The translations under genes and the position numbers were made by a program. The notes beneath the pieces are model-generated. The model made no database searches. It was not told the DNA's origin and worked only from the letters and a program-made list of their open reading frames with translations. Positions 33,733 to 37,088 of a stretch of 54,889 bases of DNA are shown here, piece by piece; the stretch's first letter is position 1; each line of letters starts with the position of its first letter. Source of the stretch: Symbiobacterium sp. (GTDB taxonomy: Bacteria; Bacillota; Sulfobacillia; UBA995; UBA9673); contig DYFB01000033.1 in NCBI GenBank assembly GCA_020725405.1, forward strand, positions 1 through 54,889, in the 5' to 3' direction.

Positions 33733-34092
33733 TTGGAGGTCACCCGCGACCTGGCGATTCTGGCCACCCGGGCGGCCGAAGAGCGAAAGGCGTCGAACGT
33801 CCTGCTCCTGGACCTTCGCGGCCTCACCCTGCTGGCCGACTACTTCCTCATCGCCAGCGGGGACAGTCAGCGCCAGGTGAGAGCCATCGCCGAGCATCTC
33901 GAGGAGACGCTCGGCCGGGCCGGGCTGCGGCTCCTCCACCGTGAGGGTTTCGAGAAGGCGCGCTGGGTCCTGCTCGATTTCGGCGGTCTTGTGTGCCACA
34001 TCTTCAATCCGGCCGACCGCGACTTCTTCGGGCTCGAGCGCTTCTGGGGCGACGCTCAGCGGGTGCCCCTCGACGGCCAGCGTTCGACTTGA
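33733..34092 (+). CDS. rsfS: Ribosome silencing factor RsfS
   Basis: 119 residues; DUF143/Iojap fold with LAILATRAAEERKASNVLLLDLRG, LADYFLIASGDSQRQVRAIAE and WVLLDFGGLVCHIF. Binds L14 and blocks subunit joining. TTG start with GGAGG 7 bases upstream. It follows nadD and an LCP gene, the standard Bacillota order nadD-(yqeK)-lytR-rsfS, here without yqeK. The leuS promoter overlaps its stop codon. Confidence 0.94.
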   Translation: MEVTRDLAILATRAAEERKASNVLLLDLRGLTLLADYFLIASGDSQRQVRAIAEHLEETLGRAGLRLLHREGFEKARWVLLDFGGLVCHIFNPADRDFFGLERFWGDAQRVPLDGQRST

Positions 34093-34118
34093 CGCGTCGC
34101 GACCGTGTCTCATATAAT
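34089..34118 (+). promoter_or_regulatory. Promoter of leuS
   Basis: TTGACG (34089-34094), 18-base spacer and TATAAT (34113-34118), overlapping the rsfS stop codon. The predicted start is near 34125, giving a leader of about 430 bases that contains the T-box and the tRNA-Ala. Confidence 0.8.
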
Positions 34119-34344
34119 GAACGACGCAGTATGACCGGCCAACTGAACCGCTTTTCGGCAAAGCGATGACCGGAAGCAGTAGGCCCGTTCGGCTTCTCCC
34201 AGAGAACCGGGTGTGAACGGGTGGGAACCGGCAGGAGCCGGAGGGCCGAACTCGTCCGGGAGCGCGCTGGCGAAACCGCCAGTAGTCAGCGACGGATGGC
34301 CGCCGTTACCCGGCCGTAGAGTGGATAGAGGGCGCAGTCTTGGT

Positions 34345-34420
34345 GGGGCCGTAGCTCAGCTGGGAGAGCGCGTGAATGGCATTCACGAGGCCGTGGGTTC
34401 GACCCCCATCGGCTCCACCA
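34345..34420 (+). tRNA. tRNA-Ala (anticodon GGC)
   Basis: 76 bases including encoded CCA. Acceptor GGGGCCG/CGGCTCC with the G3-U70 pair that identifies alanine tRNAs (G34347 and T34414), D arm GCTC...GAGC, anticodon stem CGTGA/TCACG with loop ATGGCAT (anticodon GGC at 34378-34380), five-base variable region, T arm with loop TTCGACC, discriminator A. Four bases upstream, TGGT (34341-34344), can pair with the ACCA end and lengthen the acceptor helix to 11 bp. It lies inside the leuS T-box leader. Confidence 0.95.
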
Positions 34421-34463
34421 TTATAACTTTTTATCAATAAGGGTGGTACCGCGGGAAGCTCGA

Positions 34464-34500
34464 GGGCTTCTCGTCCCTGAGGACGAGAAGCCCTTCGGCT
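34464..34500 (+). terminator. T-box terminator hairpin of leuS
   Basis: Perfect 13-bp stem (34464-34476 with 34481-34493) closed by a CTGA loop, followed by TTCGGCTTA, a poor T-tract. Its 5' strand overlaps the CCCT needed by the antiterminator, the mutually exclusive arrangement expected of a T-box. Confidence 0.85.
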
Positions 34501-34553
34501 TATCCGGGCCGCTATCCGGACCGCGCGGACCGCCCGCACCCGGAGGGACCCCG

Positions 34554-37088
34554 ATGCAGACGCGGGTTTCTGAACCGAAGACGGCTGGGGCGGCCGGAGT
34601 CGCCCCGCCCCAGATCGGCCGGCGCTACGACTTCCGCCGCATCGAGAAGAAGTGGCAGGACGAATGGGACCGGCGGCGGGCCTTCGACGTCGACGCCGAC
34701 CCGGACCGCCTCAAGTACTACTGCCTGGTCATGTTCCCGTACCCCTCGGGGGAGATCCACATGGGCCACTGCCGGGTCTACAGCATCGGCGACGTCGTGG
34801 CCCGCTACAAGAAGATGTGCGGCTACAACGTCCTTCACCCGATGGGCTGGGACGCCTTCGGCCTGCCGGCGGAGAACGCGGCCATCAAGGCCGGCCGGCA
34901 CCCCCGGGACTGGACCGTGGCCAACATCAACCGGATAAAGGAACAGCTCCATGACCTCGGGATGAGCTACGACTGGCGCCGTGAGGTCACGGCCTGCTTT
35001 CCCGATTACTACCGCTGGACGCAGTGGCTCTTCCTCCTGATGTACCGCCGCGGGTTGGCCTACCGGAAGAAGGCCCCCGTGAACTGGTGCCCGACCTGCG
35101 CCACGGTGCTGGCCAACGAGCAGGTCGTCGGCGGCGCGTGCTGGCGGTGCGAGACCCCCGTCGTCAAGAAAGAGCTCGAGCAGTGGTTCCTGCGTATAAC
35201 CGATTACGCCGACCGCCTGCTTGACGACCTCGCCCTGCTCACCGGCTGGCCGGACAGGGTCCTGACCATGCAGGCCAACTGGATAGGGCGGAGCCGAGGG
35301 GCCTATATCGACTTCCCGCTGGCGGACGGGTCCGGGGAGCGGCTCCGGGTCTTCACCACCCGTCAGGACACCCTGTGCGGGGCGACGTACATGGTCGTCG
35401 CCCCGGAGCACCCGCTGGTCGCGCGCCTCATCTCCGCTGGCGGGCCCGGGAGCGAGGAACTGCGGCGGTTCGCCGAACGGGCCCGCAACCTCTCGGAGAT
35501 CGACCGGACCAGCGACCCGGAGAAGGAGGGGCTCGACACCGGTCTCCGCTGCGTCAACCCGGCTACGGGCGAGACCATCCCCATCTACACGGCCAACTAC
35601 ATCCTCCTCGAGTACGGCACGGGGGCCGTCATGGGCGTTCCCGCCCACGATCAGAGGGACTTCGAGTTCGCCCGGAAGTACGGCCTGCCCGTCCGGGTGG
35701 TCATCAAGGGCCCCGACTCGCCCGGGAGCGCCGACGAGATGACGGAGGCCTACGACGGGCCGGGGGTCATGGTGAACTCGGGACGGTTCGACGGCCTGTC
35801 GAGCGAGGAGGGCCTGGAGAAGGTGGCCGCCTGGCTCGAGACGGAGGGGCTCGGGGCGAAGACGACCATCTACCGGCTCCGCGACTGGCTCATCTCACGC
35901 CAGAGGTACTGGGGCGCCCCCATCCCGGTGGTCTACTGCGAGGACTGCGGCGTGGTGCCCGTTCCGGAGGACGAGCTCCCCGTCATGCTCCCGTACCAGG
36001 TGGACTTCACGCCCGGGGTCTCGCCGCTGGCGAGGTCGGAGGACTTCGTCAGGACCACCTGCCCGGGGTGCGGCCGGCCCGCCCGCCGGGAGACCGACAC
36101 GATGGACACCTTCGTCTGCTCGTCCTGGTACTACCTCCGCTACACGTCCCCCGGCCACGACAAGACGCCCTTCTCCCGGGAGGAGGTCGACTACTGGATG
36201 CCCGTCGACCAGTACATCGGCGGCATCGAGCACGCCGTCCTCCACCTGCTGTACTCGCGGTTCTTCACCAAGGTCCTTCATGACGCCGGGCTCGTCGGCT
36301 TCGTCGAGCCCTTTACCAACCTCCTGGCCCATGGGATGGTCACCAAGAACGGGGCGGCCATGTCCAAGTCCAAGGGGAACATCGTCTCACCGGACGAGAT
36401 AACCGTGAGGTTCGGGGCCGACACGGCCCGCGTCTTCACCCTCTTCGCGGCCCCGCCCGACAAGGACTTCGAGTGGACCGACTCCGGGGTCGAGGGCATC
36501 TTCCGGTTCCTCGGCCGAGTCTGGCGCATCGTCCACGACCTGGGCGGCGCGGGAGGAGCCGGCGGTTCGCCGTCCCCCGACGAGGCCGACCGGGACATCC
36601 TGCGCTCGGCCCACCGGATGGTCCGGAAGATGACCCTCGATATCGACCGGCGGTTCAACTTCAACACGGCCATCAGCGCGGCCATGGAGACGGTGAACGA
36701 CCTCTACCGCTACGCGGAGAGCGTGCCGCCGGCGCGCCGTTCGCCGGCCGTCGTCCGGGAGGTCCTGGAGAAGCTCGTCCTGTGTCTTGCGCCCTTCGCC
36801 CCGCATCTGGGCGAGGAGCTCTGGCAGGTCCTCGGCGGCGAGGGGAGCGTTCACGACCAGAGATGGCCGAGCTGGGATGAGGACCTTGTCCGGGCCGAGG
36901 AGGTCGAGGTGGCGGTTCAGGTGAACGGCCGCATCCGTGACCGGGTGGTCGTGGCCGCCGGGACCGGAGAAGCCGAGCTGAGGGAGCTCGCCCTGGCCCT
37001 CGAGAAGGTCCGTCCCCACGTGGAGGGCCGGAAGGTCGTGAAGGTCGTCGCCGTGCCGGACAGGCTGGTGAACATCGTCGTCAAATAG
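34554..37088 (+). CDS. leuS: Leucyl-tRNA synthetase
   Basis: 844 residues. HIGH-type motif HMGH at residues 69-72, a zinc-type CPTC...CWRC pair (about 177-202), the CP1 editing domain (TRQDTLCGATYMVVAPEHPL, YGTGAVMGVPAHDQRD), a second Cys-rich segment (CEDC...CPGC), and the MSKSKGN loop near residue 603 with Ala in place of the first Lys of KMSKS, a variant that occurs in LeuRS. The C terminus carries VAVQVNGRIRDRVVV. ATG 34554 has GGAGGG upstream; the frame is open earlier but that is leader RNA. Regulated by the T-box. Confidence 0.97.
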   Translation: MQTRVSEPKTAGAAGVAPPQIGRRYDFRRIEKKWQDEWDRRRAFDVDADPDRLKYYCLVMFPYPSGEIHMGHCRVYSIGDVVARYKKMCGYNVLHPMGWDAFGLPAENAAIKAGRHPRDWTVANINRIKEQLHDLGMSYDWRREVTACFPDYYRWTQWLFLLMYRRGLAYRKKAPVNWCPTCATVLANEQVVGGACWRCETPVVKKELEQWFLRITDYADRLLDDLALLTGWPDRVLTMQANWIGRSRGAYIDFPLADGSGERLRVFTTRQDTLCGATYMVVAPEHPLVARLISAGGPGSEELRRFAERARNLSEIDRTSDPEKEGLDTGLRCVNPATGETIPIYTANYILLEYGTGAVMGVPAHDQRDFEFARKYGLPVRVVIKGPDSPGSADEMTEAYDGPGVMVNSGRFDGLSSEEGLEKVAAWLETEGLGAKTTIYRLRDWLISRQRYWGAPIPVVYCEDCGVVPVPEDELPVMLPYQVDFTPGVSPLARSEDFVRTTCPGCGRPARRETDTMDTFVCSSWYYLRYTSPGHDKTPFSREEVDYWMPVDQYIGGIEHAVLHLLYSRFFTKVLHDAGLVGFVEPFTNLLAHGMVTKNGAAMSKSKGNIVSPDEITVRFGADTARVFTLFAAPPDKDFEWTDSGVEGIFRFLGRVWRIVHDLGGAGGAGGSPSPDEADRDILRSAHRMVRKMTLDIDRRFNFNTAISAAMETVNDLYRYAESVPPARRSPAVVREVLEKLVLCLAPFAPHLGEELWQVLGGEGSVHDQRWPSWDEDLVRAEEVEVAVQVNGRIRDRVVVAAGTGEAELRELALALEKVRPHVEGRKVVKVVAVPDRLVNIVVK

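What the first reader, a model, noticed from the sequence alone, without database searches (positions are those of the whole stretch)
34125..34500. A complete tRNA-Ala gene is nested inside the leuS T-box riboswitch
Seen: promoter, stem I with specifier CTC (Leu), stem II and stem III motifs (34125-34335), then a canonical tRNA-Ala(GGC) at 34345-34420, then the antiterminator AGGGTGGTACCGCGG and a perfect 13-bp terminator, then leuS. Known: T-box leaders are continuous, with a short linker between stem III and the antiterminator; I know of no T-box with a functional tRNA gene in that linker. If RNase P and RNase Z process the tRNA, the sensing half would be cut from the antiterminator; if not, the tRNA fold may act as a rigid spacer or tRNA mimic. 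Either way alanine-tRNA supply and leucyl-tRNA synthetase expression would be physically linked.
Basis: partly seen in the sequence, partly recalled or inferred. Interest (0 to 1): 0.88.

Follow-up and report, generated by a model that had tools for sequence, protein, structure and literature searches.

The report
tRNA-Ala gene inside leuS T-box riboswitch
A complete alanine tRNA gene, usually the genome's only one for its codons, sits inside the RNA switch that controls leucyl-tRNA synthetase, and the same nesting is kept in about a fifth of sampled genomes of this bacterial phylum, so one transcript serves as both sensor and tRNA precursor.

Summary
Window 34157-34481 matches the Rfam T-box model above its cut-off, and a canonical tRNA-Ala(GGC) lies at 34345-34420. 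One correction: the tRNA is not in a linker after stem III but inside stem III. It replaces the apical loop, while the conserved GAGUG-stem III-AA discriminator motif stays on both sides.

The same nesting was found in 34 of 154 genomes of the class and 85 of 399 of the phylum. I collected 107 distinct loci. All carry tRNA-Ala(GGC) and, where the sequence reaches far enough, nearly all are linked to leuS. Stem III around the tRNA shows compensatory changes. A strong promoter lies before the T-box in 49 of 52 loci tested, and almost none lies between T-box and tRNA. In 50 of 52 genomes checked, the nested gene is the only tRNA-Ala(GGC) match.

Most likely, every initiation makes a pre-tRNA-Ala whose 3' terminator is the leucine-controlled T-box attenuator. 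tRNA-Ala would be made either way; leuS only when tRNA-Leu is uncharged. RNase P/Z excision is inferred, not shown. I found no description in the open papers held, but two key T-box surveys were not readable.

The parts
34089..34118 (+). promoter TTGACG-18-TATAAT shared by the T-box leader, tRNA-Ala and leuS
   Evidence: 11 of 12 matches, the only promoter-like site in 34050-34600; one search shows the same position conserved in relatives
34157..34481 (+). T-box leader (Rfam RF00230), interrupted by the tRNA
   Evidence: 94.7 bits, gathering score 93, full model
34251..34253 (+). specifier codon CUC (Leu) in stem I
   Evidence: sequence GAA-CUC-G and alignment; a CUC specifier motif in 96 of 107 relatives by regular expression
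34319..34323 (+). 5' half of the discriminator purine motif RRRxG (GAGUG) before stem III
   Evidence: same motif in 91 of 107 relatives; motif definition from PMC7583486
34324..34332 (+). stem III, 5' strand (GAUAGAGGG)
   Evidence: pairs with 34427-34435 in the minimum-free-energy fold; covariation in relatives
34345..34420 (+). tRNA-Ala(GGC), CCA encoded, anticodon 34378-34380
   Evidence: ARAGORN; RF00005 60.7 bits; only tRNA-Ala(GGC) match in the genome
34427..34435 (+). stem III, 3' strand (CUUUUUAUC)
34436..34437 (+). AA, 3' half of the discriminator purine motif
   Evidence: AA in 87 of 91 relatives
34440..34478 (+). antiterminator: T-box AGGGUGGUACCGCGG (34440-34454; UGGU bulge pairs tRNA ACCA) with 3' strand CUCGUCCCU (34470-34478)
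34464..34493 (+). terminator hairpin, 13 bp with CTGA loop, competing with the antiterminator
   Evidence: weak U tract, not listed by the scan
34554..37088 (+). leuS, leucyl-tRNA synthetase
   Evidence: ORF; full-length relatives

Best explanation
This is a transcriptional leucine T-box whose stem III apical loop has been replaced by a working tRNA-Ala(GGC) gene. One promoter upstream of stem I drives a leader RNA in which the tRNA cloverleaf forms the cap of stem III. The conserved GAGUG / AA purines and the stem III helix stay in place, so uncharged tRNA-Leu can still bridge the CUC specifier and the UGGU bulge. If tRNA-Leu is charged, transcription stops at the T-box terminator, and the aborted leader is a pre-tRNA-Ala. 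If tRNA-Leu is uncharged, RNA polymerase reads into leuS, and the same pre-tRNA sits in the 5' UTR. In both cases RNase P and RNase Z (or exonucleases to the encoded CCA) should release mature tRNA-Ala. tRNA-Ala is therefore made constitutively, while leuS is made on leucine starvation, and the attenuator doubles as the tRNA's terminator. Shown here: anatomy, conservation, stem III covariation, shared promoter, single gene copy. Inferred: T-box activity, timing, and RNase P/Z release.
For: Anatomy; the fold of 34300-34440 is stem III (9 bp) capped by the cloverleaf. Conservation: 34 of 154 class genomes (27 of 88 genera) and 85 of 399 phylum genomes (55 of 268 genera), with 0 hits for the reversed pattern; three of the pattern matches were chance hits without a tRNA. 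107 distinct loci, all tRNA-Ala(GGC): leuS directly downstream in 98; leuS second gene in five more; two have an intron-like ORF in between, and two are cut by contig ends. All 20 loci tested match RF00230 (48.6-137.6 bits, 11 above the gathering score). A CUC specifier motif is found in 96 of 107. Stem III pairs 5.24 of 6 against 4.28 +/- 0.07 with partners shuffled and at most 3.15 when slid; with one sequence per family it is 4.86, reached by no shuffle. A promoter with at most 1 mismatch lies upstream of the T-box in 49 of 52 loci, but between it and the tRNA in 1 of 52. 50 of 52 genomes have exactly one tRNA-Ala(GGC) match, the nested one. When the T-box decays the tRNA stays, next to a relic terminator (L276, L305, L319, L058).
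Against: No transcript, processing or antitermination data were available. The window's terminator has a weak U tract. The tRNA pattern is strict and could miss divergent second copies; G288 has two matches and G527 none. A U at -1 and a G at -2 before the tRNA are frequent, but ordinary tRNA-Ala genes have them too, so they are no evidence for tuned RNase P cleavage. If RNase P cut before RNA polymerase reached the terminator, the switch would work as two pieces.
Confidence: 0.78

Rival explanations
1. The nested tRNA fold is mainly a regulatory or structural part of the switch (rigid cap of stem III, transcriptional delay, or a second sensor through alanyl-tRNA enzymes or RNase P) rather than a source of mature tRNA.
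For: Stem III and the flanking purines are kept around it, and the insertion is always at the same place.
Against: The tRNA is a full, high-scoring tRNA-Ala and, in 93 of 107, has an encoded CCA. It is normally the only tRNA-Ala(GGC) match in the genome. It persists when the T-box decays. leuS T-boxes without it exist (L075, L082, L084).
Confidence: 0.1
2. The tRNA and T-box are simply neighbours: a tRNA-leuS operon in which the T-box has lost function and only its terminator is used.
For: Relic states exist with tRNA plus terminator but no stem I (L276, L305, L319, L058). The LeuS tree shows many state changes.
Against: Full-length T-box matches in 20 of 20 nested loci tested. The specifier stays Leu, and stem III shows compensatory change across families.
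Confidence: 0.1
3. Assembly artefact or chance juxtaposition.
For: The window's genome is a 97-contig draft.
Against: The same arrangement is in more than 100 loci, including single-contig genomes.
Confidence: 0.01

Closest known systems
Transcriptional T-box riboswitches with stem II (RF00230), e.g. leuS/ileS/tyrS leaders
   Same: Stem I with specifier, stem II and IIA/B, RRRxG-stem III-AA, UGGU bulge, competing terminator, aaRS gene downstream
   Different: The stem III loop holds a complete tRNA gene. The T-box papers read here (PMC7583486, PMC7778990, PMC2494555) describe stem III as variable but gave no mention of a nested gene
Dual tRNA-mRNA transcripts (from memory: E. coli thrU-tyrU-glyT-thrT-tufB, metY-nusA)
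   Same: A tRNA at the head of an mRNA, presumably released by RNase P
   Different: There the tRNA precedes an ordinary mRNA; here it is inside a riboswitch that sits between promoter and gene
RNase P cleavage of the adenine (pbuE) riboswitch and RNase J1 cleavage of the B. subtilis thrS T-box leader (reported in PMC3328962; thrS also in PMC4419217)
   Same: Processing of a riboswitch leader; for pbuE it stabilises the downstream mRNA
   Different: There no tRNA gene is present; here the cut would be made by the ordinary tRNA maturation enzymes
T-boxes with insertions in stem III or helix A2 (translational T-boxes, PMC7583486)
   Same: Extra structure within the discriminator is tolerated
   Different: The insertions described are not genes; this one is a tRNA

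Membership tests
T-box riboswitch (RF00230) | Covariance model match above gathering score | tested here: met
   94.7 vs 93 bits; 20 of 20 relatives match, 11 above the cut-off
T-box riboswitch (RF00230) | Specifier codon matching the downstream gene | tested here: met
   CUC = Leu before leuS
T-box riboswitch (RF00230) | Antiterminator with UGGN bulge competing with a terminator | tested here: met
   Sequence, alignment; U tract weak
T-box riboswitch (RF00230) | RRRxG - stem III - AA discriminator | tested here: met
   GAGUG/AA around a 9-bp stem III; 91 of 107 relatives have the 5' motif and 87 of those 91 have AA
T-box riboswitch (RF00230) | Short apical loop in stem III (usual form, not a defining feature) | tested here: not met
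   98-nt insert containing tRNA-Ala; a departure from the usual form, so 'variant' rather than 'not a T-box'
T-box riboswitch (RF00230) | Response to uncharged tRNA-Leu | not testable with these tools
   Needs in-vitro or in-vivo antitermination assay
functional tRNA-Ala gene | Cloverleaf, GGC anticodon, A73, CCA | tested here: met
functional tRNA-Ala gene | Only gene with this anticodon in the genome | tested here: met
   draft genome, so a missed copy is possible
functional tRNA-Ala gene | Processing to a mature tRNA | not testable with these tools
   Needs RNA ends
tmRNA / permuted tmRNA | Model match above cut-off | tested here: not met
   18 bits vs 47 in the window; at most 45.5 vs 47 in relatives; cross-match of the tRNA-Ala

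The most novel reading that the evidence does not exclude
Excision of the nested tRNA-Ala by RNase P and RNase Z is itself a step of the regulation. It nicks the riboswitch inside stem III, separates sensor from antiterminator after (or before) the decision, and gives the leuS mRNA a defined, structured 5' end. tRNA maturation capacity and leucine sensing would then meet in one RNA.
Probability: 0.3. Interest if true: 0.88.

Novelty: new variant of a known kind. Interest (0 to 1): 0.8.

Why it matters
It shows a riboswitch that carries a gene within its ligand-sensing domain, kept widely across a large bacterial phylum and not described in the papers I could search. It makes testable how one RNA reconciles tRNA excision with co-transcriptional switching. 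It also makes T-box abort transcripts a useful product rather than waste, and it explains where the only tRNA-Ala(GGC) of many of these genomes comes from. T-box annotation with upper length limits, and surveys that mask tRNAs, may miss it.

Tried and rejected
Chimeric join: rejected by relatives.

Own promoter for the tRNA: rejected (1 of 52).

Selection for slow RNase P cleavage through G(-2)U(-1) pairing with the 3' ACC: the dinucleotide is common in nested genes (78 of 107), but tRNA-Ala(GGC) genes outside T-boxes mostly have it too, and G(-2) is general in this genome. I do not use it.

Longest-helix search for stem III without a fixed register was too noisy, so a fixed-register test was used.

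Other tRNAs nested in other T-boxes: the pattern was open to any tRNA, but every confirmed hit was tRNA-Ala(GGC). Three hits without a tRNA (L159, L217, L224) were chance. The nine other T-box matches of this genome contain no tRNA.

Gain versus loss: the LeuS tree needs 27 changes of the nested state and cannot tell one ancient origin with many losses from transfers.

No more scans of named genomes were allowed, so most relatives are unnamed.

Full report
WHAT IS THERE. The window has one promoter-like site (TTGACG-18-TATAAT, 34089-34118), overlapping the end of the ORF upstream of leuS. It is followed by a T-box leader that matches Rfam RF00230 over its full length at 34157-34481 (94.7 bits, cut-off 93). 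A tRNA-Ala(GGC) with encoded CCA lies at 34345-34420, then the T-box sequence (34440-34454), a 13-bp terminator hairpin (34464-34493) and leuS (ATG 34554). The Rfam alignment itself places the tRNA as a 98-nt insert in the loop of the helix before the antiterminator, which is stem III. The minimum-free-energy fold of 34300-34440 gives this form: a 9-bp stem III (34324-34332 with 34427-34435) capped by the tRNA cloverleaf, whose acceptor stem is extended by UGGU (34341-34344) pairing ACCA. The conserved purines that flank stem III in functional T-boxes (5'-RRRxG-stem III-AA-3', PMC7583486) are present as GAGUG (34319-34323) and AA (34436-34437).

IT IS CONSERVED. A DNA search of 60 relatives returned the same arrangement many times. 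A pattern for any tRNA T-arm followed within about 50 nt by the T-box core hit 34 of 154 genomes of the class and 85 of 399 genomes sampled across the phylum (27 of 88 and 55 of 268 genera), with no hit to the reversed control pattern. The pattern was open to every tRNA. All 107 distinct loci confirmed by ARAGORN carry tRNA-Ala(GGC); three other pattern hits had no tRNA and were chance. leuS begins directly downstream in 98. In five (L218-L222) an acyl-CoA synthetase-like gene comes first and leuS follows about 2 kb on, same strand. In two (L195, L198) an ORF resembling a group II intron protein intervenes (my reading of the translation); leuS itself was not confirmed there. Two are cut by contig ends. 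Twenty diverse loci were run against Rfam and all matched RF00230 (48.6-137.6 bits, 11 of them above the cut-off). A regular expression for a CUC specifier fits 96 of 107. Named examples include an uncultured Firmicutes MAG (L071), a Syntrophomonadaceae MAG (L072) and Clostridia bacterium DTU022 (L073).

STEM III IS UNDER SELECTION AROUND THE tRNA. The register was fixed by the RRRxG motif and by the distance of the 3' strand to the T-box core, not by pairing. The six stem III pairs then form in 5.24 of 6 positions on average, against 4.28 +/- 0.07 when 3' strands are dealt out among loci and at most 3.15 when slid by 1-3 nt. Pairs 2 and 3 change on both sides (GC/AU; UA/CG). With one sequence per family the observed value is 4.86 and no shuffle reaches it. 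So the switch is not merely interrupted: the helix that carries the tRNA is maintained.

THE tRNA IS PART OF THE T-BOX TRANSCRIPT AND IS THE WORKING GENE. Of 52 loci with enough sequence, 49 have a promoter with at most one mismatch in the stretch upstream (-400 to -150 from the tRNA), and 1 has one between -150 and the tRNA. In 52 carriers checked, 51 have a tRNA-Ala(GGC) pattern match and 50 have exactly one, at the nested place. In this genome the 30 tRNA genes include tRNA-Ala(CGC) and this tRNA-Ala(GGC), no second GGC. In several relatives the T-box has decayed while the tRNA stays in front of leuS beside a relic terminator: L276 keeps stem III and the terminator but has lost stem I and the GGGTGG core; L305 and L319 keep only the terminator; L058 is similar. 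leuS T-boxes without a tRNA also exist (L075, L082, L084). A LeuS tree shows the nested state clustered but scattered (27 changes; shuffled mean 53). One old origin with repeated loss is the simplest reading, but transfers are not excluded.

HOW IT MOST LIKELY WORKS. Shown: a single promoter-like site, tRNA upstream of the attenuator, intact T-box features. It follows that each round of transcription should make pre-tRNA-Ala before the leucine decision. Inferred from known enzymology: RNase P and RNase Z (or trimming to CCA) release the tRNA. RNase P cleavage of the adenine riboswitch and RNase J1 cleavage of the thrS T-box leader are reported precedents for leader processing (PMC3328962, PMC4419217). 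[quoted passage not shown] coli RNase P (PMC9433436), and the window has four such pairs. However, the same -2/-1 letters are usual for tRNA-Ala genes outside T-boxes, so I do not claim a tuned delay.

NOVELTY. Ten searches of the open literature and term searches within a T-box review, the TBDB paper and a T-box genome survey found no mention of a tRNA gene inside a T-box. Vitreschak 2008 and Gutierrez-Preciado 2009 were not readable, so an earlier passing mention is possible. It remains a T-box by every testable criterion, hence 'new variant of a known kind'.

LIMITS.

Noticed in passing
L066 (G005:C23), L259 (G005:C54), L064 (G007:C207): Tyrosine-recombinase-like ORFs lie just after the nested tRNA-Ala. 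In G005 the antiterminator and leuS sit on another contig behind a partial 3' copy of the tRNA, as if an element had integrated into the tRNA and split the T-box from leuS.
   Followed up: partly
L218-L222 (G485, G235, G375, G398, G421): An acyl-CoA synthetase-like gene lies between the tRNA-bearing T-box and leuS, suggesting that it joined the leucine T-box operon.
   Followed up: partly
L195, L198: ORFs resembling group II intron proteins lie downstream of the T-box terminator, where leuS would be expected.
   Followed up: no
L276, L305, L319, L058, L074: Relic T-boxes: tRNA-Ala(GGC) before leuS with a leftover terminator but no stem I. How leuS is expressed past the terminator is unclear.
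   Followed up: partly
L056 (G032:C39): About 100 nt lie between the nested tRNA and the T-box core, including an extra hairpin followed by a T run.
   Followed up: no
L202-L214 (families f126, f68): The stem II region looks missing: stem I is followed almost at once by stem III with the nested tRNA, as in short glycine-type T-boxes.
   Followed up: no
L044, L046, L049, L051, L061, L069, L169-L175 and others: In 14 of 107 loci the nested tRNA-Ala does not encode CCA, so its 3' end must be made differently from the others.
   Followed up: no
L118 (Chloroflexi), L089, L090, L109, L129: tRNA-Ala(GGC) lies near leuS, without a recognisable T-box, in other loci, most of them from other phyla: directly upstream in L118, opposite strand in the others. 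An older linkage is possible.
   Followed up: no
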